A DNA stretch of 37,115 nt from Bryobacterales bacterium (GTDB lineage Bacteria; Acidobacteriota; Terriglobia; Bryobacterales; Bryobacteraceae), in the NCBI GenBank assembly GCA_947467395.1, contig CANIIC010000019.1, positions 1 to 37,115 on the forward strand, given 5' to 3'. Both the position numbers and the translations under genes were made by a program. Below the pieces are notes generated by a model, which was not told where the DNA came from, searched no databases, and saw only the letters and a list, made by a program, of their open reading frames with translations. Each line of letters opens with the position of its first letter. Positions within the stretch are counted from its first letter, which is position 1. Positions 11,473-29,768 of the stretch are shown piece after piece.

Positions 11473-12267
11473 CTACTGACGCACCAGCGCCGAGATCCCG
11501 CCCTTGTAGTAAGACTCGGAGAACAGTACAGACTTCTTGCGCTCCTCGGTGATCGTGATACAGGCACCGATGAGGTCGACCTTGCCCGCAATCAGTGCTG
11601 GAATGAGGGCGCCGAAATCCAACTGGACGATCTCGAGGCGCTTGTTGAGCCGTGCCGCGACCCGAGCGGCCAATTCAACATCTAAACCAACCACCGCCCG
11701 TGTCCCGTCCACGAACGAGAATGGCTCCGTTACAGGCGCGGTGCCGAAACGCAGTACACCAGCGCTCCCATCGGCCGCTAAAATCGCGGGCATGGGGCCA
11801 GGGGCTCCCTGTTTCGGCAACCAGCGATCCAGCATCTGCTCGTAGCGGCCGTCAGCTCGCGCGTCGCGAACCACTCCGTCGATGGCCTCCTTGATCGTCA
11901 CATCTCCCAGTCTCATGGCGAACCCGTATTCGTCGACCGTGATGGGGGTAGGCAGGACAGTCAAGCCGGGGTTCTTGCCGGCGATATTGCGGAGGATCGG
12001 CTCATCATAGGCCGCAGCATCGGCTTTACCGGCTTTTACTGCCATCGCGGCATCCAGCACGGAATTAAAGTATTGAAACTTCGCATCCGGAAATTTCGAA
12101 GATACCAGCTTGTCGGCAACCGTCCCGGTCGGCACGGCGAACTCCTTACCGCTTAGCTGCTCCAGGGTTGTGATCGTGATCCGCTGACCACAGGACGCAA
12201 CCAATAGTGCACAGAGCAGGAGGCCTGCTAAAGAAAAAATAGAGTACAAACGTGTCTTGCGGAACAT
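11473..12267 (-). CDS. Lipoprotein with circularly permuted SBP_bac_3 (amino-acid-binding) domain
   Basis: A 264-residue lipoprotein (lipobox LLVASC, lipid Cys C26). The two lobes of a family 3 solute-binding protein are present in swapped order. Residues about 35-152 match the normally C-terminal lobe (LSGKEFAVPTGT, AMAVKAGKADAAAYDE, then a DGRYEQMLDRWL end). Residues about 168-264 match the normally N-terminal lobe (VLRFGTAPVTEPFSFV, GLDVELA, FGALIPALIAGKVDLI, TEERKKSVLFSESYY). The Arg of TEERKK aligns with the ligand-carboxylate Arg of HisJ-type proteins. The ATG at 12267 (GAGGT upstream) is preferred over one at 12306, which lacks a ribosome site. It follows the STAS-kinase gene by 75 nt, so the two are probably cotranscribed. 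Likely role: periplasmic amino-acid capture or sensing with the transporter encoded divergently. Confidence 0.88.
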   Translation of the reverse strand: MFRKTRLYSIFSLAGLLLCALLVASCGQRITITTLEQLSGKEFAVPTGTVADKLVSSKFPDAKFQYFNSVLDAAMAVKAGKADAAAYDEPILRNIAGKNPGLTVLPTPITVDEYGFAMRLGDVTIKEAIDGVVRDARADGRYEQMLDRWLPKQGAPGPMPAILAADGSAGVLRFGTAPVTEPFSFVDGTRAVVGLDVELAARVAARLNKRLEIVQLDFGALIPALIAGKVDLIGACITITEERKKSVLFSESYYKGGISALVRQ

Positions 12268-12342
12268 TCGGGCAACCTCGTCGTGAGAATAGCAGGATCG
12301 GTTCATTCAGCCGCTAGGTCTTCAAGCTGCGGCACGGCCACC

Positions 12343-13479
12343 TCACTCTTCTCTCATCCTCGGCAAAATTGTATCCTGCAGCATGCGGATAGAGGCAGCT
12401 CGCAGTAGGGGCAAGAAGGTAATCGAGAAGATAAGCCGCAAAGAGGCTAAGAAGTAACGGTTGTTCCTGAACAAGTCGTGCTCTTCCTCGCTTCGGTCCG
12501 CGAAGTAATGTTTTTCGAAACAATTCCAAAACTCGAGCCCTACGTCCGCGGGTATCCGCGTTGCAAGCATGCTTATGCCGAGTTCTGGTAACCCGTAAAT
12601 AAAGTAGAGCAATCCAATGTCAAACAGGTAGCTTCCGATGGAAAAATCGCCCATGTCGATAATCACGGGCTCACCTTTGCGGATCATGACGTTGCTTGTG
12701 TGTAAGTCGAAATGAACGCAGGTGGCTGCATCCGGGAGGGTCTCAAGTTTGTCCGCAAGAAGTTGAATATCCGAGTCGGCGAGGTAGCCTTGCATCTTTT
12801 GCAAATAGCCCCGGAAGCTAGTTTTGAGGTTGGGAAGAACTGATGGATCTCCCTCGGCTGCATGAATGGTCTTGGCGATGTCTGAAAGCGTCTTGGCATA
12901 GCGGTCTACGTTGCTGACGTCGTTTCGGATGAGGCCACTTAAAAGTTCGGCGTCTAACATTTCATAGACAATTCCACTACGGGAGCCACACGCTACGAGG
13001 TCGTACGAAATTGCCGTTGGGATACCCATCACAAACGCTGCGCGTGCGTACTGTTTTTCACGCTCGGCAGTCTCTTGATCCACACCCTCTCGGTACAGTT
13101 TGACCACAGTCTCTGGATCGAGACGATAACATTCCCCACAGACGCCTGCTGACAGCAATTCGACACCGTCTATAGAAATCTCACGCAGCTTCTTCTTGAT
13201 GGTGATGATTTGGGAGAGACCAGTCAGGTCGAATATGCTGACGATCTCCGGTGGGACATTCGCCGCGAGCATGCTCCCCTGCGCTTGGAGCATGCTCTTG
13301 TGCGCCATCAGTACTGTCCGGATACCGGCGCTGGACAAGTAAGTGCAATTCCGGAAATCCAGGATGAGGTGGCGCACACCTTCCAGCTTCAGCTGATCTT
13401 CGACCAAAACTGTAGTCTCCGCATTTAGCTTGGGAGGTAGTATGAACGTAAACGCGCCCGCAGATTGCTCGAAGGACAT
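12343..13479 (-). CDS. STAS domain fused to aminoglycoside-phosphotransferase-like kinase
   Basis: A 378-residue cytoplasmic fusion. Residues 1-105 form an anti-anti-sigma-type STAS domain (HLILDFRNCTYLSSAGIRTV); S50, in the position after the usual Asp, is the probable phospho-acceptor. Residues about 110-378 resemble APH/choline-kinase folds: K127 in VVKLYR, the catalytic loop H256-F-D258-LHTSN263 and the metal-binding D275 in VIIDMGD are all present, so it should be an active kinase. It resembles the paralogous family TIGR02172, whose substrate is unknown. The ATG at 13479 (GAGAG upstream) begins directly at the STAS domain. The adjacent lipoprotein gene and the divergent ABC importer suggest it regulates or responds to that transporter. 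Confidence 0.88.
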   Translation of the reverse strand: MSFEQSAGAFTFILPPKLNAETTVLVEDQLKLEGVRHLILDFRNCTYLSSAGIRTVLMAHKSMLQAQGSMLAANVPPEIVSIFDLTGLSQIITIKKKLREISIDGVELLSAGVCGECYRLDPETVVKLYREGVDQETAEREKQYARAAFVMGIPTAISYDLVACGSRSGIVYEMLDAELLSGLIRNDVSNVDRYAKTLSDIAKTIHAAEGDPSVLPNLKTSFRGYLQKMQGYLADSDIQLLADKLETLPDAATCVHFDLHTSNVMIRKGEPVIIDMGDFSIGSYLFDIGLLYFIYGLPELGISMLATRIPADVGLEFWNCFEKHYFADRSEEEHDLFRNNRYFLASLRLIFSITFLPLLRAASIRMLQDTILPRMREE

Positions 13480-14001
13480 TTTGAAGATTCTCTCTAAGGT
13501 TGGGGAAACGGTTGCTTTCAAATGGACTCGGCGTGGCAACCTGCCGGTCTTCAGAGTACACGGGATTGTTTCGGATCGACTCCAACCGTAAGGATTTAAC
13601 AGTTCCTCTCCTGCCGCGGCGAATCCGTGCTTCCGACGCGCCGGGAAGCCACTAGCTGGCTGTACCGAGCAGCCAGATCACGCGCAAATCTGCTTGTCCC
13701 GATCAAAATCGGTTAACCGTCAGCCCTCCTTGCTTTTGGGTTCTTCAGTTGACGAAACCAACGTCTGGATGGTCCCCTCTAATAGGCCGCTCGGTGTCGT
13801 ACGGCCGCATCGCTGATGGGGAACAGTTGTTCGGCCGGACTGTTTTGTGCGCAAATCAATGGCCCGCCGGAGTGCTCCACGCCGGCGGAATCGATTAATA
13901 CCGGCCAGTCGATTGCTCGAGTCATCCGGCTAGGTAGTAACCTGGGTACCGAGAGCAGGCCGTTTCTGCATTCAGATTCACGGGAAAGAGAGTTTAGACA
14001 A
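13480..14001. promoter_or_regulatory. Divergent intergenic region between STAS-kinase and SBP-permease genes
   Basis: About 520 bp holding the promoters of both directions. No protein-coding frame is convincing. A perfect 10-bp palindrome CGGTTAACCG at 13710-13719 lies roughly mid-region and overlaps a second small inverted repeat (CCGAT/ATCGG, 13699-13712), making it a candidate operator. I could not identify confident -35/-10 pairs. Confidence 0.4.
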
Positions 14002-17000
14002 ATGCTCATGATGAAACGATTCAAGTCGGCTCTTCCCACGTGCGGTTTGTTGCTGGCGCTGACCTCCTGTGCCACTGCCCCGAATGCAGCCATTACGACA
14101 CTCGCCAGCGCCGAGCACGCCAAAATCGGCGTCATGACAGGATCCACCGGTGAAGTGTTCGCAAAGCAACGCTTCCCTGAAGCTCAGCTGAAGAGCTTCG
14201 ATGACATCATGGACGCGGTAGCGGCCATGAAAGCCGGTCAGCTGGATGGTCTCATCACCGCCACTTCGAGTGCGATTCAGATCGGCAAAACAAATCCGGA
14301 TCTCGGAATGTTGTCGGATGTCCTCACCCACGAGGATACGGCTATAGGCCTTCGCAAGGGTAATGATCAACTACTAGCATCCATCAATGAGATCATCGCC
14401 AGCCTCAAGAAGGACGGCACATTCGAGGATATGAAACGACGATGGTTCAAGCCCGACCTAAGCCCCTACGAAGAGCCTAGTATTGACATCCCATCCGAAG
14501 GGGAGCCTCTTCGCGTGGGGGTGAGTGCTACGCGCGAGCCATTCAACTTCGTCGACAAGGACGGCCGCGTCACCGGACATGATGGAGAACTAGCCCGGAT
14601 CTTTGCAAATCGGATGCATCGCCCTCTGGAATTCCTAAATATGAAGTTCTCGGCGCTCATCCCCGCGCTGCAATCTGGCAAGGTTGACCTGATTGTGACG
14701 GGCATGTCCGCCACAGAGGAGCGGAAGAAGTTCATCAATTTCTCCGAGCCGTATTTTGCCAATTCCCAGGTTCTGATGGTGAAGAGATCTGGCGACGCCC
14801 CGTCGGGCAATCCTGTACAACGCGATGAACTTTCGAGTCTTCCGCAGGTTGAGGGGAAGATTATTGCAGTCTTGTCAGGCTCAGCTGGGGATTTGGCGGC
14901 ACGTAGACACTTCCCCAAGGCCAACTTTCAGCCAATGGCCGCATCTGCTGATGCCGCGATCGCTGTCAAGACACGGAAGGTAGATGCATTTGTCTACGAC
15001 AAAAGTGTGCTTCTGAATATTGCCGCGAAGAATCCTGACCTTGTAATTTTAGAGGAACCCGTAGATAAGCTTGAGGTCGCCGCGGCGATCCGTAAAGAGA
15101 ATACCTCCTTACTGGCAGACATCAATGGTGTGCTGGAGGAACTCAAGAGCCGAGGCGCCCTAGAGCAGTTGCGGAAGAAATGGGTAGACTCGAACTACAC
15201 AGTTCCACCCAGGAAAGCCGCAAAAACGCAGACATCCGCCAAGGGGGTTCTGCGAATGGGAACGGCTGCTACGATTGAGCCATTTTCCTTTCAGGAAAAC
15301 GGAACTCTGACCGGTCTCGATATTGAACTGGCCGAGATGATTGGAGAGCGCCTCGGCAAGTCTGTCGAGTTGGTGGATATGAACTTCGAAGCGCTGATTC
15401 CGGCGCTGCAATCCAACAAGATCGACTTCGCCCTTTCGAATTTTAACGTCACGGAAGAGCGTAAGAAGCTGGTCCTTTTCTCGTCCCCATACATCAGCAA
15501 TGACATCTCCGCTTTGGTCCGGAAGTCGTCCCAATCCGCATCCACTGGGGACCCAGGGACTGCTTCCAGTGACGGGCACTCCAAATTGGTGTCTACCGCA
15601 GATCTTAAGGACAAGAAGATCGGCGTGCTGTTAGGTTCAGCGCATGATGCGTGGGCCGGCAAAAACTACCCCAATGCGACCATCCTGCAATACCGAACAT
15701 CGGCCGACGTGACTCTTGCCGTAAAAACGGGTAAGGTCGACGCGGCTATTTTTGACGAGGTGCCTCTTCGCGATGTGCTTCGCGACGATCCTTCGCTGGG
15801 AATGCTCGGAGAATCGTTATTTTCCTTCACCGTCGGAGCTGGATTCAATCGGGAAGCGACGGCGCTGTTGCAGCAGTTCAACGCCTTCCTCGCGGATATC
15901 AAGAGGAATGGAGTCTATGCCGAGATGGTCACGCGCTGGATCGAAAAACGGCAGAGCAGCATGCCCGCTTTCGATCAGACGAAAACAAGTGGATCGTTAG
16001 TTGTAGGCGTCACCGGCGGCGGCGCCCCCTTCAGCTTCGTCCAGGACAATCAGCTGATTGGATTTGACATCGAACTGGTCAAGCGCTTTGGCGCTTCGAT
16101 CGGCAAAGAAGTCAGGCTGTCGGACATGGAGTTCGGCAGTCTCATTGCAGCTGTGGCGACCAAGAAAGTCGATCTGATCGCTGCCTCGATTTACATCACG
16201 GAAGAACGAAAGAAGCAGATCAACTTCTCAGATCCGTACTACGAAATGGGCAATCGCGTGTTCGCTCTGAAAAGCAACATTGCGGCCTACTCCAACCAAA
16301 CAACGGCCCGCCCGGTCAAAGCATCTTTCCTTACTTCTTTGGCGAGCAGCTTCCGAAGCAATATTCTCGACGAGAATCGCTACTTGCTGCTTCTGGACGG
16401 CCTAAAGACTACGGTGATCCTGTCTATTCTGTCTACCGTATTTGGAACGGTGTTGGGTTCTGTGATCTGCTTCCTCCGGATGTCCTCATCACCCTGGTTA
16501 AATGTTCCGGCTCGGCTTTACATCACAATTCTTCGCGGCATGCCAGTCTTGGTGCTACTGATGCTGATCTTCTACGTGGTCTTTGCCTCGGTGGATATCA
16601 GTCCAATCCTCGTAGCAGTCATCGCATTTGGCATGAACTTTGGCGCCTACGCGTCTGAGATCTTCCGGACTGGCATTGAGGGTATCGACAAAGGCCAGAC
16701 CGAAGCAGGCATCGCAATGGGCTTCACCCCAGTGCAATCCTTCCTCTACATTGTCTTGCCGCAGACTGTCCAGCGCATCCTGCCTGTCTACAAGGGAGAG
16801 TTCATCTCGCTAGTCAAGATGACTTCTATCGTCGGCTACATCGCGGTACAGGACTTGACGAAGGCGAGCGACATTATTCGGAGCCGCACTTTTGATGCGT
16901 TCTTCCCCTTGATCATGGTGTCGGTGTTGTATTTCGCCATCTCCTGGATTCTCATGCAATTCCTTCAATACATAGAGCGCCAGACCGACCCAAAGTATAA

Positions 17001-17025
17001 GCGCAAGCAGAGAGGTGCAGCATGA
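14002..17025 (+). CDS. Amino-acid ABC transporter: three SBP_bac_3 equivalents in permuted lobe order fused to permease
   Basis: A 1007-residue lipoprotein-permease (lipobox ALTSC, C23). Six half-domains follow the signal: C-lobe (about 35-150), N-lobe (168-263), C-lobe (283-398), N-lobe (413-508), C-lobe (528-650), N-lobe (663-758). Each N-lobe carries TEERKK with PY after it and each C-lobe a (K/R)VDA-like motif, except that the first C-lobe reads QLDGLI. The chain then enters a HisM/GlnP-type permease: membrane segments about 801-825, 839-862, 869-888 and 967-988, with the EAA coupling loop at 901-921 ([20 protein letters not shown]). The ATG at 14002 has AGAGAG 9 nt upstream; the longer in-frame start lacks a lipoprotein signal. 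The stop codon overlaps the ATPase start by 4 nt. Known relatives (such as GlnPH-type fusions) join complete SBPs to the permease; beginning with a C-lobe and ending with an N-lobe is unusual. Confidence 0.92.
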
Positions 17026-18116
17026 TCAAAGTCGAACATCTTTCAAAAACTTTCGGCGAGTTGACGGTGCTCAAAGACATCAGCACCGAGATCAAGAAAG
17101 GCGAAGTTGTCTCGATCATTGGGCCTTCAGGCACCGGCAAGAGCACGTTCCTTCGCTGTCTCAATCTTTTGGAAGAGCCAACAAACGGGTCCATCCACAT
17201 TGATGGCGTAAACGTACTGGAGAATCGGGCTGATATCCCGAAGCTTCGACAACGCATGAACATGGTGTTTCAGTCTTTCAACCTGTTCTCACATCTCTCG
17301 GTTCTTGAGAATCTCACCCTGGGGCCAATCAAGCTGCGCGCCATGAATCCAAAGGAAGCCGCATCAAGATCAATGGAACTGCTCCGTCTGGTGGGCCTCG
17401 CCGAAAAAGCCAACAACTACCCGGACGAACTTTCCGGCGGCCAAAAACAACGCGTGGCCATAGCCCGTTGTCTGGCGATGGAACCGGAGATTATTTTGTT
17501 CGACGAACCCACGTCAGCTTTGGATCCGACGATGGTGAGCGAGGTCCTCTCCGTAATTCGCCGCTTGGCTCGCGAAGGCATGACCATGGCGATCGTGACC
17601 CATGAAATGGACTTCGCGCGAGACGTATCCAGCCGGGTGTTCTACATGGATGAGGGCGGAATCTACGAAGAGGGACCGCCGCAGCAGATCTTTGAGAATC
17701 CGCTGCGGCCTCGAACCAAAGCGTTTATCCACCGGATTCGCAGTTACACCACGCGGGTCCAATCACCTGACTACGATCTTTACGGCATCAACGCCGAAGT
17801 AGAGGGCTTTTGCGAGAAACAGATGTTCCCGGCTTCCCTCCGGCAAAACATATTGCTCTTCGTCGAGGAATTGCTGACTCTATATCGCCCCCATCTGACC
17901 GCTGCGCAGTTGGACCTCACCGTGGCATTCTCAGAAAAGTCAGATCGGCTTCAATTAGTGTGCGAGACACAGCCCGCACTCCCTAATCCTCTTGAAAATG
18001 AAGATGGAGATCTCGGTGCGATGATTTTGCGGAATATGAGCGAACGTGTGACCTATCTTCGGGACGCAGGCAAAAGCACTTTGGAACTCACGCTTCGTCC
18101 GCCGACAGATCAGTAA
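17022..18116 (+). CDS. Polar amino-acid ABC transporter ATPase with C-terminal RsbW-like (degenerate HATPase) domain
   Basis: A 364-residue protein. Residues 1-245 are a complete GlnQ/HisP-type ATPase: Walker [10 protein letters not shown] (34-42), Q-loop Q84, signature LSGGQ (137-141), Walker B ILFDEP with E162, H-loop H194. Normal family members end near here. Residues about 250-360 instead resemble anti-sigma-factor kinases of the RsbW/SpoIIAB type: [15 protein letters not shown] aligns with the N-box helix and [20 protein letters not shown] with the C-terminal LGL-helix-strand. The N-box Asn appears replaced by Leu and no DxGxG box is visible, so kinase activity is doubtful while STAS binding remains possible. 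It is translationally coupled to the permease gene (4-nt overlap), and a STAS gene follows 55 nt later. The ATPase call is certain; the tail is a pattern-based inference. Confidence 0.93.
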
Positions 18117-18171: not shown

Positions 18172-18510
18172 TTGGTAAATAGTCGTGTGGTCGACGGCAT
18201 AGCGGTCTTAGAACTAGTTGGGAGGGTGGTGCTCGGAGCAAGTGTCAATGCTTTCCGCGAATCTTTAAGTCTTCTGCATGAAAGAGGGCAACACAAGATC
18301 GTGCTTGTTCTCATTCAAGCCCCATTCATCGACAGCGCGGGGCTTGGCGTGATTGTCGATGGATACAACCAATGCGTGGCCGCAGGTGGGACTCTAAAAC
18401 TTGTGCAGCCGAGCACTCAGGTGCTGAGAGTGTTGGCGGTTGCCGGCCTCGACCGACTTTTGGAAAGCTACGTTCATGAGAGGGACGCTATCGCCAGCTT
18501 TCGGGCTTAG
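18172..18510 (+). CDS. STAS domain protein (anti-anti-sigma factor-like)
   Basis: A 112-residue single STAS domain with the canonical phospho-acceptor motif FIDSAGLGV (D54, S55) in the usual place, so it can probably cycle between phosphorylated and free forms. The start is TTG at 18172, with GGAAAGGAAG just upstream; no in-frame ATG is available before the domain begins. It lies 55 nt behind the ABC ATPase carrying an RsbW-like tail, so it is probably cotranscribed and is the obvious candidate partner for that tail. It is distinct from the STAS protein at the end of the chemosensory operon, which has SSAGLR instead. Confidence 0.9.
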   Translation: MVNSRVVDGIAVLELVGRVVLGASVNAFRESLSLLHERGQHKIVLVLIQAPFIDSAGLGVIVDGYNQCVAAGGTLKLVQPSTQVLRVLAVAGLDRLLESYVHERDAIASFRA

Positions 18511-20320: not shown

Positions 20321-20350
20321 GCTTCAGTGAATCCTCGAGGATCATCAAAT

Positions 20351-22051
20351 ATGCTTAGTTCCCTCTCAAAGTGGCGGCCAGGTACCATTCGGACCCGTAT
20401 CATTCTCCTCATCTTGGTGGGTAGCGTGGTGAGTTTGGGTGTCGGCTATGAAGGATTGCTACAGGCGGAGCGTAGTAGCGCTCAGTTCCAGAACATCTTC
20501 GAACAACGTGTCGTATCCACGGGTTACTTGAAAGATGTTCAGACTGCCTACAACGTCCAAATTGTCAGCGCAATGATCAAGTATGCCGATGGCCTATCGT
20601 CAGCTTCAGATGCCCTGACAACAGTCGAAGGAGCGGATGCGAGCATTTCCGAAATCTGGCCCAAGTTTGCTTCTCGCCAGACTGCGGAGGTCGACAAGCA
20701 GCTGGTGGATATTGCGCAGTCCCTTCGGACCGAGGTAGACGGAAATGTAGAGACCCTCAAGACTCTGCTGAAGAAGTCGGACCGGCCTGGGGTCCGCAAG
20801 TTCCTCGACGAAACCTGGTACCCATCCGCGGATCCTTTTGCGGATCAACTGACACAGTTGTACCAAACGCAGCAGAGCGAGGCTCGCAATGACTTTGAAG
20901 ATCTGACGGCGGCTTATGCGAACGGCCGTTCGCTTCAGATGTCGATTATCGGAGTTGGATTAGCCCTTTCCCTGTTTCTAGGATGGACAGTCGTCCGCAC
21001 AGTTACACGCTCGCTGAGTGGTGTGCGCCGACAGTTGCACGAATTGGCTGGGGGCGGCGGCGACTTGACACGACGACTGCCTACGGGAACGGATGAAGTT
21101 GGACTGATTGCAGAAGAGGTCAACCAACTGATGGACAAACTGCTGACGCTCGTTCGGCGAGTTCAGGAGTCAGGAATTCAAGTAACCTCGTCGGCCACTC
21201 AATTGTCGTCGTCTTCGAAAGAACTTGAGTCCACACTGGGCGAACAAGTGACTTCGACTAACGAAGTAGTATCGTCGGCAAAACAGATTTCAGCGACGGC
21301 GCAGACCTTAGTAAAGACGATGACGGAAGTCGCGTCTCTGTCGCATGATCTGGCGGAGTCTGCGGGACAGGGGCAAACCGGGTTAGCGCGAATGAGCGCA
21401 ACGATGGAAAAGATGGAAGCCGCCTCCGCCGCCATCGCCCAAAAACTCGCAGCGATCAACTCAAAGGTGAACAACATCACCAGTGTTGTCACAACGATTA
21501 ACAAAGTTGCGGACCAGACTAACCTGTTGTCTCTGAATGCGGCAATTGAGGCCGCTAAGGCAGGTGAGTTCGGACAGGGCTTCGCCGTGGTGGCCCGCGA
21601 AATTCGGCGTCTCGCGGACCAGACTGCAGTGGCGACGTTGGATATCGAGCAGATGGTCAAGGAGATGCAATCTTCCGTGTCTTCCGGGGTGATGGGCATG
21701 GAGAAGTTTGCCCAGGAAGTACAGGGAACAGTTCGAGAAGTCAGCGAAATCAGTGGCCAGATTGGCCGCATCATTGAGCAAGTCCAAGGACTCGGGCCGC
21801 GTTTTGAGTCTGTAAATGAAGGAATGGAATCGCAGTCGATCGGGGCCCATCAAATTTCGGAAGCAATGGTTCAGTTGAGCGATGCTACCGTAGCGACGGC
21901 GGAATCGCAGCGTGAGGCCGCACGCGTCATTCAGGTCTTGGAGCAGGCCGCCCGGGTCCTGCATCGGGAGGTATCTTTGTTCCGGGTATCTGAAGTCAGT
22001 TCTGGCGTCCCACTGGCAGGGGATAATGACACTGCCCAAGTCCAGGCTTAA
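20351..22051 (+). CDS. Methyl-accepting chemotaxis protein, WspA-like
   Basis: A 566-residue transmembrane chemoreceptor: TM1 (about 17-35), a helical periplasmic sensor of about 160 residues resembling a four-helix bundle, TM2 (about 196-217), a HAMP domain (218-265) and a long cytoplasmic signalling hairpin with the conserved tip at about 380-425 ([19 protein letters not shown]). The ATG at 20351, with GAGGA upstream, is preferred over an in-frame GTG at 20327. It is the first gene of a run whose order matches the Pseudomonas wsp operon (wspA-F), so it probably senses a surface- or envelope-related cue rather than steering flagella; no flagellar genes are in the window. Overlaps the CheW gene by 26 nt. 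Confidence 0.93.
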
Positions 22052-22523
22052 AGTTGTGACTTCAGGAATCCTCACAGGGCTGATCTTTGAAGCCGGCAGA
22101 CAGCGGTATGGTCTGGACGTTGAAGACATTCTTGAAGTCGTTCCAGCCGTGCGGTTGAGGACTCTGCCGGGACTCCCCAACTACGTCGCCGGGATTTTCA
22201 GTTATCGGGGAGAACTTGTTCCAGTTCTGGACTTGAGTATGATGCTGAGCGGCGTCGCCGTTACGGAACACTTCAGCACGCGCATTGTACTGGTTCGTTA
22301 CTCAATCGACGGTAAGGATCCACAAACCTTGGGATTGCTGGTGGAACGTGCGTCTCAAGGCCTAGTCGAGAATCGCGGTGAACTGTTGTCTTCTGGAATT
22401 GTGAGCCCCCAAGCACCCTATCTTGGGAAATTCGCTGCAGAGGGAAACTCGATCGTTCAATTCATCAATGTGCATCAGTTGATTCCGGAGAACCTACGTG
22501 GACTACTCTTCGTCGAGCAATGA
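22026..22523 (+). CDS. CheW-like coupling protein, WspB-like
   Basis: A 165-residue protein that is essentially one CheW domain ([20 protein letters not shown], then [20 protein letters not shown]). It couples the receptor to the CheA kinase. The start ATG lies inside the end of the MCP gene, with AGGGGA just upstream; an in-frame extension further back is rejected because it runs through MCP coding sequence. It also overlaps the next gene by 26 nt, so translation through the operon is tightly coupled. It occupies the position of wspB in the wsp gene order. Confidence 0.9.
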
Positions 22524-23727
22524 TCACATCGCGATGGCTGATCTGCGCGAACTGCTCGCGTCGAGAATTGGCTTCGACTCCGACGTTCTTGGATCGACAT
22601 TCCTGAGCTCCATTGTCAGCCGGTGTCAAGCACAGGCAGGCATGTCTAATGTCGGAGAATTTGTTCGTGCTGCGGCTGAAGGCGGCGAGTGGTGGCACCT
22701 GTTACTCGACACAGTGGTCGTTTCGGAAACTTGGTTTTTTAGGGATGCGCCCATGTTTTCGGAACTGGTTGAGCGCGTGCGCGCCTCCGTGGAAACATTC
22801 GACTCCCGGGCAACTCGCATCTTTAGCTGTCCCTGTGCCACCGGCGAAGAACCCTTCTCGGTGGCCATGGCTTTGTCTGCTGCCGGCATCGCCCCTAAAG
22901 CGTTTACGATTGAGGCCGCAGATGTTAGCCCGAGGCTGATCCGGACAGCGCAACAGGGGTTCTTCTCCGCCCGTTCGTTTCGGGAAGTGAAGGATCGAGA
23001 TTTAAATCCTTATTTCGACCCCCAAAATGATCACGGCCGGCTACGATTGGCAGCCCCGTATCGGGAGATGGTACAGTTTCGGATCTTGAATCTGGCGGCC
23101 GCCCCGCAATTACCCATGTTCGACATCATCTTGTGTCGCAACTTGCTGATCTACCTTCATGATGGAGCTCGAAGATCCGTGATGGAGACCTTGCAGAACT
23201 CGCTTGCCCCGGGTGGGGTGTTATTCGTTGGACACGCGGAAGCGTCGATTGCGCTGGAATGCGGGTTACGACCCGCTGGAGACCCTCGGGCGTTTGGATT
23301 TGTGCGCCCAGACCGGTTGCAACCCGCAGCGCGGCCAGAACGAAAAGGGCTGCCGCCTCTCGTGCGCGATCGCGTTGTCCGGCCAATCGAAACAAGCAGC
23401 GGCAGGCGCGCTGTGCCTACGCTTCAAGAGATTCGGAACCTGGGTGATCGTGGGGCTGTCGCCGAGGCGATACGCGCTTGTCGGCAGTATCTTCATTGCT
23501 CTCCCGACTCTGTGGATGGGCACTTCTTGCTGGGCGTGTTACTCAGCGCGCAGGGCGACAAGGGAAGTGCGGAAAGTGCCCTGCGGCGGGCGCTCTACCT
23601 GGACCCCAACCATCCGGCGGCACTGGAACACCTAGCGTTTTCGGAAGATGCCAAAGGCGATAGCAAGAGTGCCATAAGGCTTCGCGCACGGATCCGGCGA
23701 GGAGAGCGAGAGAGGGCGGAGGCATGA
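22498..23727 (+). CDS. CheR-type MCP methyltransferase with C-terminal TPRs, WspC-like
   Basis: A 409-residue protein. The CheR methyltransferase part (about 15-275) has ETWFFRD (77-83), the SAM-binding SCPCATGEEPFSVAM (from 110) and FDIILCRNLLIYL. The C-terminal TPR-like helices (about 310-405, with HFLLGVLLSAQGDKGSAESA) match the CheR-TPR layout of WspC and FrzF. It methylates receptor glutamates for adaptation. The GTG start at 22498 has GGAG 7 nt upstream, whereas the ATG at 22534 has no ribosome site. The catalytic loop reads CPCATGEE, a small departure from the usual CSTGEE. Overlaps both neighbouring genes. Confidence 0.93.
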   Translation: MDYSSSSNDHIAMADLRELLASRIGFDSDVLGSTFLSSIVSRCQAQAGMSNVGEFVRAAAEGGEWWHLLLDTVVVSETWFFRDAPMFSELVERVRASVETFDSRATRIFSCPCATGEEPFSVAMALSAAGIAPKAFTIEAADVSPRLIRTAQQGFFSARSFREVKDRDLNPYFDPQNDHGRLRLAAPYREMVQFRILNLAAAPQLPMFDIILCRNLLIYLHDGARRSVMETLQNSLAPGGVLFVGHAEASIALECGLRPAGDPRAFGFVRPDRLQPAARPERKGLPPLVRDRVVRPIETSSGRRAVPTLQEIRNLGDRGAVAEAIRACRQYLHCSPDSVDGHFLLGVLLSAQGDKGSAESALRRALYLDPNHPAALEHLAFSEDAKGDSKSAIRLRARIRRGERERAEA

Positions 23728-24389
23728 CAGAACCAGGAGTAGACACGGCCCAGTTCCAGCGCTGCTGGGCTCAAATCGGGGTCTGGGGAGATAGTTCTTG
23801 TCAGGAGTTATCAAGGTTCATTCATTGCCGGAACTGTTCGGTGTACAGTGCCGGAACAGAAGAGTTGCTTGCCCGGAAAGCGTCTCCCGATTATCTGGAC
23901 ATGTGGTCGCAGTTGCTGGCCAAAGAGAAAGATTTAGGACCAGCATCGGGTCAGTCATACGTGATCTTTCGCGTTGGGGGGTCGTGGCTGGCCATCCGGG
24001 CGATTGTTCTCCGAGAGATCGCCCCGCCGGCGGTCATTCGTTCCTTGCCGCATCGCCGGTCAGAGTTGCTTTTGGGTTTAACCGCCGTGCGCGGTGAGAT
24101 CTACCTTTGCGCTTCGTTGCATTTGTTGATCGGGGAACCACCGCCCGCAACCTCGGATTCGGGTACGCGTTTCCTGGTCGCTGCCCATGAAGGAGCCAAT
24201 TGGATCTTCCCGGTGGACGAAGTGAGCGGGATTGAAGACTTCCCGGATATCGCGATGGAGCCACTACCGGCAACTCTGGCCCATACCGGAAACATTTACA
24301 CGCGAGGGATCGTGAAGGCCGCAGAGCGCCCAGTCGGATTGGTGGATGAAGCATTGGTCTTTAGGGCATTGGAACGGAAGATCACGTGA
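23724..24389 (+). CDS. CheW-like coupling protein with N-terminal Cys motif, WspD-like
   Basis: A 221-residue protein. The N-terminus has four Cys in a compact pattern: C14, C26, C35, C38 (CWAQIGVWGDSSC, then HCRNCSVYSAG). From what I recall of WspD-type CheW proteins, this N-terminal signature is characteristic and supports the Wsp assignment; it could bind a metal or Fe-S cluster or form disulfides. A CheW domain follows (about 78-215, with YVIFRVGGSWLAIRA and LLGLTAVRGEIYLCASLHLL). Start and stop overlap the neighbours by 4 nt each (ATGA and GTGA arrangements), typical of one translationally coupled operon. Confidence 0.9.
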   Translation: MTEPGVDTAQFQRCWAQIGVWGDSSCQELSRFIHCRNCSVYSAGTEELLARKASPDYLDMWSQLLAKEKDLGPASGQSYVIFRVGGSWLAIRAIVLREIAPPAVIRSLPHRRSELLLGLTAVRGEIYLCASLHLLIGEPPPATSDSGTRFLVAAHEGANWIFPVDEVSGIEDFPDIAMEPLPATLAHTGNIYTRGIVKAAERPVGLVDEALVFRALERKIT

Positions 24390-27130
24390 GCGATCTGGGA
24401 AAGTTTTCCATGTGGGACCTGTTCCGGGGCGAGGTAGAGTCCCAGATGCAGGTTTACACCGACGGCCTTCTGGCAATTGAGGGAGGCGCGGATCCGCAAT
24501 CGCATCTGGCCGGGACGATGCGGGCCGCGCACTCGATTAAGGGCGCTGCGCGCATTGTCCAGCTGGATATCGGGGTGCGGCTTGCCCACGTGATGGAGGA
24601 CTGTCTTGTGGCAGCGCAGGGTGGGGAGCTCACCTTGGACGCTGCAGCCATCGACGTTCTTCTCGCTGCGGGTGACTTGTTAGCCCAGCTCGCGGCAGTG
24701 GATGAATCCGCCGTGAGCGGATGGCTGGAAGGACAGGGGCCTCGCATTGAAGATGTGATTGTGCGGCTGGTCCAAGTACGCAGCGGGAGTTTGAAGAACC
24801 CGAGTGCACCTGTTGTGGCACCGCCTCCTGGAAGCCGTTCTGAGTCAACGGCATCACTCGGCAGTTTTTCCATGTGGGATCTGTTCCGGGGCGAAGTAGA
24901 GTCTCAGATGCAGGTTTACACTGACGGGTTGCTCGCCATTGAAGGGGGTGCCGAACCGCAGGCACATCTGGCCGCCACGATGCGGGCAGCGCACTCGATT
25001 AAGGGTGCCGCCCGCATCGTCCAGTTAGACATCGGCGTGCAGTTAGCACATGTGATGGAGGACTGTCTGGTCGCAGCCCAGGAAGGTAGTCTGGGATTGA
25101 AGGCTTCGGGAATAGACGTCCTTCTCGCGGCCGGGGACCTTCTGGCCAAGCTCGCTGCGGTTGATGAATCTGCGGTGACGCAATGGCTTCAGGAAAACGA
25201 CTCCGCCATCCAAGCGTTGATCTCCCAATTGGAACAGGTTCGGGCCGGGACCTGGACGGGGCCAGTTGCGGCGACGCCCTCGGTCGTCGCTGTGCCCGCA
25301 TCCGGGCCGGCCATCAGTCAGCCACCCACTCAGGAAGCTACGAGCGGTGGGCTCGCGGTCCCGAGCAAGGCCCCGATTTCCCGAGCGACCGATTCGCAAG
25401 ATCGCAGCCTCAAAATTGGCGCGCAGGCACTGAATCGGGTCATGGCACTGGCTGGCGAATCCCTTGTGCAGAGTCGGTGGTTCGAGCCTTTTGGCGGATC
25501 GCTGCTGGCCTTGAAGCGGCTGCAGCACGAAATTAGTGAAAGCTTGGATCTCTTAGAAACCGCTCTGGCAGACGCCTCGGAAGAATGGGCCGACTCCGTT
25601 ACAGCCACCCGGACAAAGCTGGAAGCGATGCGCCAACTCACGGTGGAGTGTCACCTGAATCTCGAAACATTCGGATTGCGGTCTTCCAGCCTCTCTGATC
25701 GACTCTATCGAGAAGTTGTGTCGACGCGCATGCGGCCCTTCGGCGATGGCGTCGAGGGATTTCCGCGGCTTGTGCGCGATGTGGCTCGACAATTAGGGAA
25801 GCAAGCTCAGATCGAAATCCTCGGACGCGAAACCAAAGTCGACCGCGAGATCCTGGATCGACTGGAAGCGCCCTTAAATCACATCATTCGCAACTGCCTG
25901 GATCATGGCCTAGAGTCTCCAGAGGGTCGCGTGGCAGCTGGTAAGCCTGCGGTCGGGACGATCCGAGTGGAAGCCCGGCACCGCGCCGGACTCTTTGTTC
26001 TCACAGTCTCCGATGACGGCCGCGGGGTAGATACGGAGCGATTGCGTGTCAAGGTAGTCGAGCGCGGATTGGCAACAGCCGCAATGGCTGCCAATTTCTC
26101 CGAAGCCGAATTGATCGAGTTTCTGTTCCTCCCCGGTTTTTCCACTGCGGCGCAAGTAACCGATATTTCAGGTCGTGGCGTTGGTTTGGATGCAGTTCAG
26201 GACATGGCGAAGTCGGTAGGCGGCTCCGTTCGCATGACTTCCCGACTCGGCAAGGGCATTGCACTGACGCTTGAACTGCCCCTCACGCTTTCAGTGGTGA
26301 GGACGCTCGTAACGGAAATTGGGGGAGAGCCATTTGCGTTCCCCTTGACTAGAATTGCGAAGACAGTCCAGTTGGCCTACAACGATTTGGTATCGCTGGA
26401 GGGCCAGCAGTATTTCACTTTGGATGGCGAACGAATCGGGGTGGTTCCGGCACATGACTTGTTAGGACTCGCTGCCAAACCAGCGTTTGGAGATGAAATT
26501 CCGGTTGTGCTGCTGGGGGAGCGGACTGAGCGGTATGGATTGGCGGTGGACCGCTTTCAGGGAGAACACGATATGGTTGTTCGACCGCTGGATCCCCGCT
26601 TGGGCAAGGTTCAGGACATCAGCGCCTCGGCCGTCATGGATGATGGTTCTCCGGTGCTCATCCTCGATGTGGAAGACTTGATTCGCTCGATCGCAACGGA
26701 GCTTCAAGGGGGACGGTTGCGTGGATTGGGTCGCGCAAAACTATCTGAGGCCAAGCGCAAGAGAATTCTGATCGTAGAGGACTCGATCACTGTTCGCGAA
26801 GTTGAGCGTGCCTTGCTGAAGAATAATGGCTACGAAGTTGACGTGGCCGTGGATGGCATCGACGGGTGGAACGCATTGCGTTCCGGCGAGTACGATCTGG
26901 TTGTGAGCGACGTGGATATGCCTCGCATGACAGGTTTAGAACTCGTGGCTCTGATTAAAGCTGACATTCGATTGCAGTCGACGCCCGTTATCATCGTTTC
27001 TTACAAAGACCGGGAAGAAGATCGCCTCCGTGGACTGGATGCCGGGGCAGACCGGTATATGACCAAGAGTAGTTTCCATGACCAGACACTACTCAATGCA
27101 GTATTCGAGTTGATTGGTGCGCCTGAGTGA
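24386..27130 (+). CDS. Hybrid CheA histidine kinase with two Hpt domains and a receiver, WspE-like
   Basis: A 914-residue protein. Order: Hpt1 (about 5-135, phospho-His H49 in AAHSIKGAAR), Hpt2 (about 159-290, H203 in the same motif), a Pro/Ala linker, a dimerisation/kinase core (about 340-630: N-box N503 in HIIRNCLDHGLES, G1 DDGRG 543-547, G2 GRGVG 596-600), a CheW-like domain (about 635-770), and a receiver (793-914, phospho-acceptor D842, K894). The GTG start overlaps the preceding stop and has GGAAG just upstream. WspE has the same architecture but, as I know it, one Hpt. It should phosphorylate its own receiver, the CheB and the REC-PP2C protein encoded downstream. Confidence 0.94.
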   Translation: MSDLGKFSMWDLFRGEVESQMQVYTDGLLAIEGGADPQSHLAGTMRAAHSIKGAARIVQLDIGVRLAHVMEDCLVAAQGGELTLDAAAIDVLLAAGDLLAQLAAVDESAVSGWLEGQGPRIEDVIVRLVQVRSGSLKNPSAPVVAPPPGSRSESTASLGSFSMWDLFRGEVESQMQVYTDGLLAIEGGAEPQAHLAATMRAAHSIKGAARIVQLDIGVQLAHVMEDCLVAAQEGSLGLKASGIDVLLAAGDLLAKLAAVDESAVTQWLQENDSAIQALISQLEQVRAGTWTGPVAATPSVVAVPASGPAISQPPTQEATSGGLAVPSKAPISRATDSQDRSLKIGAQALNRVMALAGESLVQSRWFEPFGGSLLALKRLQHEISESLDLLETALADASEEWADSVTATRTKLEAMRQLTVECHLNLETFGLRSSSLSDRLYREVVSTRMRPFGDGVEGFPRLVRDVARQLGKQAQIEILGRETKVDREILDRLEAPLNHIIRNCLDHGLESPEGRVAAGKPAVGTIRVEARHRAGLFVLTVSDDGRGVDTERLRVKVVERGLATAAMAANFSEAELIEFLFLPGFSTAAQVTDISGRGVGLDAVQDMAKSVGGSVRMTSRLGKGIALTLELPLTLSVVRTLVTEIGGEPFAFPLTRIAKTVQLAYNDLVSLEGQQYFTLDGERIGVVPAHDLLGLAAKPAFGDEIPVVLLGERTERYGLAVDRFQGEHDMVVRPLDPRLGKVQDISASAVMDDGSPVLILDVEDLIRSIATELQGGRLRGLGRAKLSEAKRKRILIVEDSITVREVERALLKNNGYEVDVAVDGIDGWNALRSGEYDLVVSDVDMPRMTGLELVALIKADIRLQSTPVIIVSYKDREEDRLRGLDAGADRYMTKSSFHDQTLLNAVFELIGAPE
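24398..25255 (+). repeat. Tandem duplication of the Hpt-coding segment inside the CheA gene
   Basis: About 24398-24790 and 24860-25255 encode near-copies of one Hpt domain, offset by 462 bp (154 codons). Across the first 76 aligned residues I count about five differences, while the DNA differs at many third codon positions. The duplication is therefore not brand new, and both protein copies appear to be under constraint. Confidence 0.85.
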
Positions 27131-28176: not shown

Positions 28177-28195
28177 AAAGAAATAGGAGTCGTCT

Positions 28196-29404
28196 ATGTC
28201 ACAGAATCCTCAAATTGCAACTCAAACCAATCAGGCAAACCGCCCGCACCCGATCCGAGTGCTGCTCGTCGACGATCAGGCCATGATTGGTGAAGCGGTG
28301 CGACGCATGCTTGTATCAGAAACCGATATCGACTTCTTGTACTGCGGCGACCCGACGAAAGCCATGCAGGTGGCAGCAGATTACCAGCCGACTGTGATTC
28401 TTCAGGATCTGGTGATGCCTGAAATCGACGGACTGACCATGCTTCGCTACTATCGCGCCAATCCTGTCACTCGAGACATTCCCACGATCGTTCTTTCGAC
28501 GAAGGAAGATCCGAAGGTGAAGGCAGAGGCGTTTACCCTTGGGGCAAGCGACTATCTCGTCAAGCTGCCAGACCCGATTGAACTGACGGCCCGCGTTCGA
28601 CTCCATTCACGTGGGTATATCGCCCAATTGGAGAGGAATGAAGCGTATGCGGCGCTGAAGGTGAGCGAAGAGCGACTAGCAGAAGAACTTGCTGAAGCAG
28701 CGCGATACTTGACTTCATTGCTACCGGCTCCGTTGAGAGGGGCTGTATCGACGGATTGGCAGTTTATTCCATCTGCCGAACTGGGCGGCGATACATTTGG
28801 TTACTCGTGGCTGGATGATGAACACTTCGCGATGTACGTCTTGGACGTTTGTGGCCACGGACTGAAGGCGGCTCTGCTGTCCATCTCCGCGATGAATGTA
28901 CTGCGCAACCAGACGCTGCCTGCAACCGATTTCCGGTCACCTGGCTCCGTGCTGTCCGGAATGAATGAGGCGTTTCAAATGACGCGCCACAACAATATGT
29001 ATTTCACGATTTGGTATGGGGTGTTCAATCGGAGAACGAGAGCGCTTAGTTTTGCCAACGCAGGCCACCCCTCGGCGTTGCTGAGGCAGGGGGATTCTTC
29101 GGAAACGGCGACGCTTACGGAACTCTCCAATCCGGGAATTCTGCTGGGGGCTTTCCCCGGCATCAAGTACGAAGAACGTGTCACGACCCTGCCGGCATTC
29201 AGCCAGCTCTACTTTTACAGTGACGGTGTTTTCGAAGTGACCCGGCCTGACGAAACGATGATGACTTTTGAGGAATTCATAGAAGTCATGGCGGCCGCGC
29301 CCCGCGATGGTACAGCGGTTTCGTATGCCATCGATAAGATCCGTGAAGTGAGAGGACCGCGGAGTTTTGAAGATGATGTATCTATGGTGGAAGTAACGCT
29401 CTAG
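28196..29404 (+). CDS. WspR-type receiver fused to SpoIIE/RsbU-type PP2C phosphatase
   Basis: A 402-residue response regulator. The receiver (about 20-140: D26-D27, phospho-acceptor D71 in ILQDLVMPEIDGL, K123 in SDYLVKLPDPIEL) closely resembles the WspR receiver as I recall it, including DDQAMIGEAVRR and RDIPTIVLSTKE. A coiled-coil-like linker (about 145-172) follows. Where WspR has GGDEF there is a PP2C/SpoIIE phosphatase (about 175-402) with metal-binding Asp residues in LGGD (D199), LDVCGHG (D217) and the terminal FEDD (D393/D394). Such enzymes dephosphorylate STAS proteins; one is encoded 37 nt downstream. Prediction: CheA phosphorylation of D71 tunes phosphatase activity. No GGDEF domain occurs in the window. 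Confidence 0.94.
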   Translation: MSQNPQIATQTNQANRPHPIRVLLVDDQAMIGEAVRRMLVSETDIDFLYCGDPTKAMQVAADYQPTVILQDLVMPEIDGLTMLRYYRANPVTRDIPTIVLSTKEDPKVKAEAFTLGASDYLVKLPDPIELTARVRLHSRGYIAQLERNEAYAALKVSEERLAEELAEAARYLTSLLPAPLRGAVSTDWQFIPSAELGGDTFGYSWLDDEHFAMYVLDVCGHGLKAALLSISAMNVLRNQTLPATDFRSPGSVLSGMNEAFQMTRHNNMYFTIWYGVFNRRTRALSFANAGHPSALLRQGDSSETATLTELSNPGILLGAFPGIKYEERVTTLPAFSQLYFYSDGVFEVTRPDETMMTFEEFIEVMAAAPRDGTAVSYAIDKIREVRGPRSFEDDVSMVEVTL

Positions 29405-29441
29405 TCCAGAAGTATCTGAGCTATTTTGATTTGGAGTCAAT

Positions 29442-29768
29442 ATGGAACTACTACAGGAAATTCACGGGGAGACTACGGTGGTCTCTATCTCTGGTCGCTT
29501 AGATGGCATTACCTGCGCGGATGCCGAAAAAACCCTGGCGAGTGCGGTTTCGACGGCAGGGGGAGGGCTCGTCCTCAATCTATCCGAGCTGACGTATGTA
29601 TCGAGTGCGGGCCTACGAGTTGTACTGATGACCGCCAAACAGCTCCAGGCGGCACAGAAGACTTTTGCGGTCTGTGGGTTGAAGTCGCCGGTCAAGGATG
29701 TCTTTGAGATCAGCGGTTTCTACAAGATCTTCCGGATCACAGAAAGTGTAACTCAAGCTTTGGGCTAG
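29442..29768 (+). CDS. STAS domain anti-anti-sigma factor, partner of the REC-PP2C protein
   Basis: A 108-residue single STAS domain (VVSISGRLDGITCADAEK, then LVLNLSELTYVSSAGLRV). S55, in the position after the usual Asp, is the likely phosphorylated residue and the probable substrate of the phosphatase encoded just upstream. A GGAG site precedes the ATG. The YVSSAGLRVVLM segment is close to YLSSAGIRTVLM of the STAS-kinase fusion at 12343-13479, suggesting related partners. There is no stand-alone RsbW-type kinase next to it, so its cognate kinase is either elsewhere in the genome or one of the fused domains in this window. Confidence 0.92.
   Translation: MELLQEIHGETTVVSISGRLDGITCADAEKTLASAVSTAGGGLVLNLSELTYVSSAGLRVVLMTAKQLQAAQKTFAVCGLKSPVKDVFEISGFYKIFRITESVTQALG

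What the first reader, a model, noticed from the sequence alone, without database searches (positions are those of the whole stretch)
17022..18116. ABC importer ATPase carrying an RsbW-like, apparently kinase-dead C-terminal domain
After a normal GlnQ-type ATPase, about 110 extra residues match the ends of the anti-sigma kinase fold (helix with EELLT, then [19 protein letters not shown]), but the N-box Asn and a DxGxG box are not visible. A STAS gene follows directly. This suggests that STAS binding to the tail gates transport, i.e. partner switching acting on a transporter instead of a sigma factor.
Basis: partly seen in the sequence, partly recalled or inferred. Interest (0 to 1): 0.85.

Follow-up and report, generated by a model that had tools for sequence, protein, structure and literature searches.

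The report
Importer ATPase with dead anti-sigma-kinase tail
A bacterial amino-acid importer carries, on its motor protein, a disabled copy of the kinase that normally switches sigma factors, and relatives of this importer are encoded together with the rest of that switch, which suggests that the switch turns a transporter rather than a gene programme on or off.

Summary
ORF 17022-18116(+) is a GlnQ-type ABC ATPase plus a 124-residue tail. AlphaFold2 folds the tail confidently (pLDDT 92.5); its closest solved folds are UsfX, RsbW and SpoIIAB. Across 91 homologous tails the N-box Asn is kept in 6 and the DxGxG Asp in 1. The ATP lid is 11-19 residues, against 25 in 10 neighbouring kinases. The Glu that touches the STAS serine in RsbV-RsbW (PMC7340262) is kept in 87. 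The tail is therefore an RsbW-derived pseudokinase.

The tail profile matches 33 of 296 sampled genomes of one relative's phylum. STAS genes lie in the held flanks of 31 of 91 loci. In 7 of 32 replicate loci an SpoIIE phosphatase, the ATPase+tail, a STAS and an intact RsbW-like kinase share one strand with a permease; no sigma70 gene was found near these operons.

Best reading: partner switching acting on an importer, with unphosphorylated STAS docking on the tail. Binding and gating are inferred. The one linked model was inconclusive, 60 of 91 loci show no local STAS, and the window's adjacent STAS is atypical.

The parts
17022..18116 (+). ABC importer ATPase (GlnQ/polar amino acid type) with C-terminal RsbW-like pseudokinase domain, 364 aa
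17022..17741 (+). nucleotide-binding domain, residues 1-240; Walker [10 protein letters not shown], signature LSGGQ, Walker B ILFDEP and H-loop THE visible, so the motor itself looks active
   Evidence: sequence; ABC_tran; motif names from general knowledge
17742..18113 (+). pseudokinase tail, residues 241-364, RsbW/SpoIIAB fold
   Evidence: AF2 pLDDT 92.5, pTM 0.84; Foldseek and VIA-align; hhalign
17868..17870 (+). Glu283 (tail residue 43), aligned with the catalytic/STAS-contacting Glu of RsbW-type kinases; kept in 87 of 91 tails
   Evidence: RsbW Glu49-RsbV Ser56 contact from PMC7340262 (passages); that Glu49 is the Glu of this motif is recalled
17880..17882 (+). Leu287 (tail residue 47) in place of the N-box Asn
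18172..18510 (+). single-domain STAS protein, 112 aa, with the Ser of the phosphosite motif (IDSAG) but without the GRLD-type Asp
   Evidence: searches (PF01740 E 2e-15; TIGR00377 above cut-off), alignment
13816..17025 (+). four SBP_bac_3 domains fused to a permease (1069-aa ORF; the real start is probably near 14002, before a lipoprotein-like signal); overlaps the ATPase start by 4 nt
   Evidence: start site is my reading of the sequence
28196..29404 (+). response regulator-SpoIIE phosphatase, possible distal partner
   Evidence: partnership is inference
29442..29768 (+). canonical single-domain STAS (GRLD, YVSSAG), possible distal partner
   Evidence: partnership is inference
12343..13539 (-). 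STAS fused to APH-type kinase, divergent from the transporter; possible partner
   Evidence: partnership is inference

Best explanation
The ATPase of a polar-amino-acid-type importer has acquired an RsbW-derived domain that has lost the elements for binding ATP and phosphorylating, but keeps the fold, and the Glu, that RsbW uses to hold an unphosphorylated STAS protein. The proposed cycle has four steps. (1) An intact RsbW-like kinase phosphorylates the Ser of a small STAS protein. (2) A membrane dCache-HAMP-SpoIIE phosphatase, or a response-regulator-SpoIIE phosphatase, removes the phosphate when it senses a signal. (3) Unphosphorylated STAS docks on the pseudokinase tails of the ATPase dimer. 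(4) Docking changes the activity or assembly of the importer. This is partner switching with a transporter in the place of the sigma factor. Shown by computation: the domain identity, the loss of ATP-binding elements, the retained Glu, the recurrent gene linkage with intact STAS, kinase and phosphatase, and no sigma70 gene nearby in the 8 genomes whose hits were listed in full. Inferred: STAS binding, its dependence on phosphorylation, and the direction (activation or inhibition) of its effect on transport.
For: Fold: tail model pLDDT 92.5, pTM 0.84. Closest chains: UsfX 8ih8_C Z 13.3 (2.5 A, 116 aligned), RsbW 6m37_C Z 12.3 (2.5 A, 110) and SpoIIAB 1th8_A Z 11.8 (3.0 A, 118); best Foldseek E 2.4e-5. 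Motifs in 91 tails: Glu 87, Asn 6, Asp 1, lid 11-19 residues; in 10 kinase domains of these loci Glu, Asn and Asp are present in 10 of 10 and the lid is 25 residues in all 10. Linkage, first set of 59 loci: STAS within the held flanks in 21, HATPase in 12, SpoIIE in 11, all three in 8. 11 STAS genes start within 1 kb 3' of the ATPase where about 0.08 are expected (density from 113 STAS hits in 74 Mb of 21 genomes). Linkage, replicate set of 32 loci: STAS within 100 nt downstream on the same strand in 9 (one by an ORF call that overlaps the ATPase end), a kinase with intact motifs directly after it in 8, SpoIIE upstream on the same strand as well in 7. Clearest example L121: NMT1, dCache-HAMP-SpoIIE, (SBP)3-permease, ATPase/tail, STAS, kinase on one strand. 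In the 8 genomes of these operons none of 28 sigma70_r2 hits is near: no hit on the operon contig, or over 240 kb away on it. Precedent: the STAS protein MlaB binds the ABC ATPase MlaF, and phosphomimetic MlaB Thr52Glu reduces binding (PMC7367683, passages).
Against: No interaction was shown. The linked tail-STAS model (L052, stop read through) has pTM 0.57 with a poorly predicted STAS half. STAS and tail distances correlate only weakly once ATPase distance is removed (24 pairs, partial r 0.19; 509 of 5000 permutations as high). 60 of 91 loci have no STAS gene in the flanks held, 21 of them in fetched 20-kb stretches, so the partner must often be elsewhere or absent. In the window there is no local kinase, the phosphatase is 10 kb away in a chemotaxis-like cluster, and the adjacent STAS lacks the Asp of GRLD. 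L056 has a sigma gene 1.2 kb from its ATPase, and in four further loci one lies 10-20 kb away on the contig. The loci within each set are related, so the counts are not independent. Several operon contigs are short (16-34 kb), which limits how far 'no sigma nearby' reaches.
Confidence: 0.68

Rival explanations
1. The tail is only a structural or dimerisation domain. RsbW-type domains dimerise through beta-1 and alpha-1, so the degenerate domain may clamp the two ATPase subunits, like the regulatory domains of MalK or MetN (recalled), without any STAS partner.
For: The only two invariant columns of the 57-row tail alignment (D12, F23) lie in or next to the first helix, and beta-1/alpha-1 is the RsbW dimer interface in PMC7340262 (passages). 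60 of 91 loci have no STAS gene in the held flanks.
Against: The STAS-contacting Glu is kept in 87 of 91 tails although the Asn and Asp of the ATP site are lost.
Confidence: 0.15
2. The importer is the sensor, not the target: its transport state exposes or hides the tails, which soak up or release unphosphorylated STAS, and the output is some other STAS partner.
For: The tail is part of a ligand-driven machine with several substrate-binding domains. The module has its own intact kinase that could read free STAS.
Against: No sigma70 gene is encoded near the operon in the 8 genomes with full lists; other kinds of target were not searched for. The phosphatases examined carry their own sensor or receiver domains, so a second input is not needed.
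Confidence: 0.1
3. The linkage is functional but indirect: the partner switch controls something else, and the tail is a relic of a fused kinase that once phosphorylated STAS.
For: Tails of a few lineages keep the Asn (6 of 91) and one keeps both Asn and Asp (L154), so the domain may have degraded from a kinase state.
Against: A relic should keep decaying. Instead the tail is found as a whole domain in loci of several phyla with a largely uniform pattern of losses and a kept Glu.
Confidence: 0.07

Closest known systems
RsbU-RsbV-RsbW / SpoIIE-SpoIIAA-SpoIIAB partner switching
   Same: Same three component families (PP2C phosphatase, STAS with phosphosite Ser, HATPase_c_2 kinase), encoded together in some relatives; the tail has the RsbW fold
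   Different: No sigma70 gene found near the operons; a second, degenerate RsbW domain is fused to an ABC ATPase
MlaF-MlaB (MlaFEDB)
   Same: A STAS protein bound to an ABC ATPase that has a C-terminal extension; phosphomimetic change in MlaB weakens binding (PMC7367683, passages)
   Different: Lipid transporter; the extension is about 25 residues and mostly extended, not a folded domain; MlaB binds the ATPase domain; that paper reports no experimental evidence of MlaB phosphorylation
GlnPQ-type polar amino acid importers with substrate-binding domains fused to the permease
   Same: SBP_bac_3 domains fused to BPD_transp_1 permease plus GlnQ-like ATPase
   Different: Known members have no HATPase_c_2 tail (recalled, not from a call)
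SypA-SypE, RbaV and HmpV non-canonical STAS switches
   Same: Partner-switching components whose STAS protein acts downstream or on an unknown target (PMC10120452, abstract and passages)
   Different: No transporter target mentioned in the passages seen

Membership tests
RsbW/SpoIIAB anti-sigma serine kinase | RsbW-type GHKL fold | tested here: met
   PF13581 near full length but below its cut-off
RsbW/SpoIIAB anti-sigma serine kinase | N-box Asn (Mg-ATP) | tested here: not met
   Leu in the window; Asn in 6 of 91 tails
RsbW/SpoIIAB anti-sigma serine kinase | Asp of DxGxG (adenine) | tested here: not met
   Thr in the window; Asp in 1 of 91 tails
RsbW/SpoIIAB anti-sigma serine kinase | ATP lid with GGLG-type glycines | tested here: not met
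   11-19 residues in 91 tails against 25 in 10 of 10 kinase domains
RsbW/SpoIIAB anti-sigma serine kinase | Glu that contacts the STAS phosphosite Ser | tested here: met
   87 of 91 tails; contact from PMC7340262 (passages)
RsbW/SpoIIAB anti-sigma serine kinase | Binds a STAS antagonist | tested here: inconclusive
   linked model pTM 0.57, STAS half poorly predicted; correlation test 509 of 5000 permutations
RsbW/SpoIIAB anti-sigma serine kinase | Sigma factor partner encoded nearby | tested here: not met
   window contig: no listed sigma70_r2 hit (list cut near E 1e-10); none near the operon in 8 of 8 genomes with full lists; but 1 of the 13 genomes (L056) has one at 1.2 kb
Partner-switching system | STAS with phosphosite Ser, PP2C phosphatase and HATPase_c_2 kinase encoded together | tested here: met
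   met for relatives: 8 of 59 loci and 7 of 32 loci; not met as a compact operon in the window itself
MlaFB-like STAS-regulated ABC ATPase | MlaF/MCE-type transporter | tested here: not met
   best NCBIfam models of the ATPase are GlnQ, TcyN, EhuA and its permease partner is SBP_bac_3-BPD_transp_1
MetN-type NIL/ACT regulatory tail | NIL/ACT domain match | tested here: inconclusive
   the only Pfam matches of the tail up to E 10 are HATPase_c_2 and, at E 0.1, HlyD_D23; no NIL or ACT among the fold matches listed, which does not exclude it
Polar amino acid importer (GlnQ type) | GlnQ-like ATPase with SBP_bac_3 and permease partner | tested here: met
   ATPase below the equivalog cut-offs, so the substrate is not assigned

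The most novel reading that the evidence does not exclude
A phylum-crossing class of ABC importers is a direct effector of Ser/Thr partner switching through a pseudokinase receptor on its ATPase, and information flows both ways: STAS docking gates transport, while the transport cycle exposes or hides the tails and so sets the free STAS pool, making the importer receptor and effector at once.
Probability: 0.2. Interest if true: 0.92.

Novelty: new variant of a known kind. Interest (0 to 1): 0.82.

Why it matters
Partner switching is best known as a way to free sigma factors. Here its parts recur in one operon with an importer whose motor carries a disabled copy of the switch's kinase. If binding is confirmed, this would be a post-translational on/off control of nutrient uptake by Ser phosphorylation. 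It would also bear on the question left open in the MlaFB paper (PMC7367683, passages) of whether a STAS protein regulates an ABC ATPase through phosphorylation, and it would suggest a partner for STAS, SpoIIE and RsbW-like genes that lie beside no sigma factor. The operons are compact, and some relatives are named cultured strains (Rhodocyclus purpureus L041, Azonexus hydrophilus L057), so the idea is directly testable.

Tried and rejected
ACT/NIL-like or other unrelated tail: not supported by the Pfam scan or the fold comparison, though absence from those lists does not exclude it. Direct sequence search of the PDB with the tail alone and with the tail profile (three chance-level hits, no RsbW) did not find the RsbW structures; only the profile-profile and fold comparisons do. 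One stand-alone kinase (L041) also found no PDB sequence at E 0.001. Plasmid search with the tail: no match. Among 100 relatives of the window's genome only one other genome matched, weakly and in 139-residue frames, so the tail is not a feature of the window's genus.

Linked co-fold: the neighbouring STAS of L052 is in frame with the ATPase after a TAG, so tail and STAS were modelled as one chain with TAG read as Gln. A first mixed alignment (A3) put tail halves on the STAS and was discarded. Subsets were tested and only one STAS homologue could be kept (A4). Result: tail half good, STAS half poor, pTM 0.57, inconclusive.

Co-inheritance of STAS and tail (24 pairs; L067 dropped because its ATPase is truncated): not significant.

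Tree: the four GlnQ outgroup rows have saturated branches (7 to 10 changes per column, probably read on the wrong strand), so no rooting is used. I use only the finding that the STAS-near label needs at least 6 changes on starred branches.

Rows dropped before counts: from 37 fetched stretches, L119, L126 and L141 (the contigs of L045, L049 and L055), L151 (second copy of the L125 operon in one genome) and L153 (no tail ORF over 250 aa) were dropped, leaving 32. L070 and L071 were left out of A2 but are in the 59 and 91 counts. The first-set SpoIIE count of 11 includes a 119-aa hit in L069 and the window's own gene 10 kb away.

Literature: searches for partner switching, STAS or anti-sigma terms together with ABC transporters; from the listings (titles and starts of abstracts) no paper describes an RsbW-like domain on an ABC ATPase. 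Only PMC7367683, PMC7340262 and PMC10120452 were opened, by passages. Subscription papers and preprints are not covered.

Full report
What is there. The ORF at 17022-18116 (+) encodes 364 residues. Residues 1-240 are a GlnQ-type ABC ATPase (ABC_tran E 2e-37; GlnQ, TcyN and EhuA are the best NCBIfam models, all below their cut-offs), with Walker A, signature, Walker B and H-loop readable in the sequence. It overlaps by 4 nt a gene for four SBP_bac_3 domains fused to a permease (13816-17025). Residues 241-364 are an extra domain. A STAS gene follows after 55 nt (18172-18510).

Identity of the tail. Alone, the window tail matches HATPase_c_2 over nearly the whole profile but below the curated cut-off (E 8e-4, 19.9 bits against 27.4). 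The tail is in the window's genome once. Among 101 genomes (own and relatives) the only other match is weak and in 139-residue frames, so it is absent from the window's sampled genus-mates. Among 396 genomes of the phylum, own included, 3 match, the other two being ATPases with the tail (L012, L013). The contigs of those two have the lengths, and the tails the sequences, of two records titled uncultured Acidobacteria (L014, L017), so the window's phylum is probably Acidobacteriota. An alignment of three tails then found 58 loci in genome contigs by a two-pattern scan that is far from exhaustive. Their record titles name Acidobacteria, Bacteroidetes/Bacteroidales, Gemmatimonadetes, Chlorobiaceae, Ignavibacteriales, Verrucomicrobia, Proteobacteria (including Geobacter and Deltaproteobacteria) and Bacillota.

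A profile-profile comparison of the 59 tails (51 kept by the program) with 10 kinase domains from the same loci (nine stand-alone proteins and the C-terminal domain of the L064 SpoIIE fusion) gives probability 99.0, E 7.1e-18 for this one comparison, over 118 columns. A search of 13 genomes with the tail profile gives, besides the ATPases, 138-159-residue HATPase frames (own genome C20, E 3.8e-11). AlphaFold2 on the window tail with 57 sequences gives pLDDT 92.5 and pTM 0.84, with elements strand-helix-helix-strand-strand-helix-strand-strand. The best solved matches are UsfX (8ih8_C, Z 13.3, 2.5 A, 116 aligned), RsbW (6m37_C, Z 12.3, 2.5 A, 110) and SpoIIAB (1th8_A, Z 11.8, 3.0 A, 118); SiaB and the RsbW domain of Rv1364c are tied with these, and histidine kinases follow at Z about 7 (Foldseek).

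Why it is called kinase-dead. In 91 tails (59 of the first set, 32 of the replicate set) the Glu of the N-box motif is kept in 87, the Asn four residues on in 6 (L053, L059, L062, L068, L069, L154) and the DxGxG Asp in 1 (L154). The stretch between the DxG glycine and the G2 region is 11-19 residues. In the 10 kinase domains the Glu, Asn and Asp are present in 10 of 10 and the stretch is 25 residues in all 10. In the RsbV-RsbW crystal structure Glu49 of RsbW contacts Ser56 of RsbV, the phosphorylated residue, and helices 1-3 of RsbW contact RsbV (PMC7340262, passages); that Glu49 is the N-box Glu is recalled. So the tails lost the ATP-handling parts and kept a residue that touches the partner's serine. 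No assay was run; 'dead' rests on motifs.

Neighbourhood, first set. A permease match occurs in 57 of 59 loci (window plus L014-L071); the other two, L058 and L067, begin inside the ATPase. The permease gene normally precedes the ATPase but follows it in L060 and L061. STAS genes occur in the held flanks of 21, HATPase kinases in 12, SpoIIE phosphatases in 11, any of these in 22 and all three in 8; flanks are up to 10 kb and several contigs are short. Eleven STAS genes start within 1 kb 3' of the ATPase (9 on the same strand), where about 0.08 are expected from the density of STAS domains in 21 of these genomes (113 in 74 Mb). The loci are not independent, but on the tree the STAS-near label needs at least 6 changes on starred branches. 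Examples: an intact HATPase_c_2 kinase (E 9e-24), a PDC-HAMP-SpoIIE phosphatase and an NMT1 binding protein in Rhodocyclus purpureus (L041); a response-regulator-SpoIIE in L037; a SpoIIE-HATPase fusion in L064.

Replicate set. The tail profile at E 1e-12 matched 3 of 396 genomes of the window's phylum and 33 of 296 of the phylum of L036, a Bacteroidales record; one of those 33 has its match in a 144-residue frame and may be a stand-alone domain. I fetched 37 stretches (34 from that search, three from the genome of L056) and kept 32 (drops listed under Tried and rejected); a permease match occurs in 32 of 32. In 9 of 32 a STAS gene lies within 100 nt downstream on the same strand (L135 by an ORF call that overlaps the ATPase end); in 8 a kinase with intact motifs follows it directly; in 7 (L118, L120, L121, L124, L125, L147, L148) an SpoIIE phosphatase is also upstream on the same strand. 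In L121 one strand reads NMT1, dCache-HAMP-SpoIIE, three SBP domains plus permease, ATPase+tail, STAS, kinase, with the kinase starting on the base after the STAS stop. In L147-L149 the permease match lies 3' of the ATPase instead. The STAS proteins of the 10 replicate loci that have one carry G(R/K)(L/M)D and YISS(A/S/V)G, and the 8 kinases EEA(F/V)(V/I)N, D.G and GGLG.

Sigma factors. The 8 genomes of these operons have 28 sigma70_r2 hits in all; none is on the operon contig except in genome G585 (and, for the second locus L135, G520), where the nearest is over 240 kb away. Several of the operon contigs are only 16-34 kb long. In an earlier list of 13 genomes, cut near E 1e-10, only L056 has a sigma gene within 10 kb of the ATPase (1.2 kb); L024, L031, L037 and L040 have one 10-20 kb away.

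Results against. 60 of 91 loci show no STAS in the held flanks, including L045, L049 and L055 (Chlorobiaceae/Chlorobiales titles) and many replicate loci with similar 361-363-residue ATPases. The window itself lacks a local kinase; its SpoIIE and a canonical STAS lie 10 kb downstream at the end of a chemotaxis-type cluster, and the two strong kinases of the genome lie on other contigs (C14, C20). Its adjacent STAS has the phosphosite Ser but not the Asp of GRLD, which 26 of the 28 aligned STAS domains have. The linked tail-STAS model was inconclusive, and a co-inheritance test was not significant (24 pairs, partial r 0.19, 509 of 5000 permutations).

Mechanism proposed. The intact kinase keeps STAS phosphorylated; a signal through SpoIIE dephosphorylates it; free STAS docks on the tails of the ATPase dimer and changes the importer's activity. 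MlaFB is the nearest experimental precedent for a STAS protein on an ABC ATPase, and there a phosphomimetic change weakened binding (PMC7367683, passages). Whether docking activates or inhibits is open. Rivals are a dimerisation clamp, the importer as sensor, and a relic.

Novelty. Each part is known; the combination was not seen in the listings of six searches of the held library, which covers open-access PMC papers only. STAS switches with reversed order or unknown targets are described in PMC10120452 (passages). I rate it a new variant of partner switching.

Noticed in passing
window 12343-13539 (-): STAS domain fused to an APH-fold kinase (TIGR02172-like, below its cut-off), divergently placed from the transporter; in L037 a 730-aa STAS-TCAD9/APH protein also sits in a partner-switch cluster.
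   Followed up: partly
window 20327-29768: Chemosensory cluster (MCP, CheR, CheW, CheA-receiver hybrid, CheB) ending in receiver-SpoIIE and a canonical STAS, as if chemotaxis-type signalling drove a partner switch.
   Followed up: no
window 11473-12306 (-): A 277-aa SBP_bac_3 protein whose second binding-domain match stops at profile position 91 of 132; looks like a truncated tandem SBP.
   Followed up: no
window 13816-14002: The first 62 residues of the SBP-permease ORF do not look like a protein start; a lipoprotein-like signal (LLLALTSC) suggests the true start near 14002.
   Followed up: no
L024:2263-6289, L031:16066-20092: A second kind of ABC importer (ABC_sub_bind, BPD_transp_2; Pfam run on L024 only) encoded with a 406-417-aa protein of STAS plus about 300 residues without a Pfam match; possibly another STAS-transporter link.
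   Followed up: partly
L154: One tail paralogue in the L056 genome keeps both the N-box Asn and the DxG Asp, a possible intermediate on the way to the pseudokinase.
   Followed up: no
L041:3499-10417: Two divergent copies of the permease-ATPase/tail pair lie side by side in Rhodocyclus purpureus.
   Followed up: no
L118, L124, L125: Two separate same-strand ORFs with permease matches (508 aa and about 1000 aa) precede the ATPase, so the importer may use two different fused subunits.
   Followed up: no
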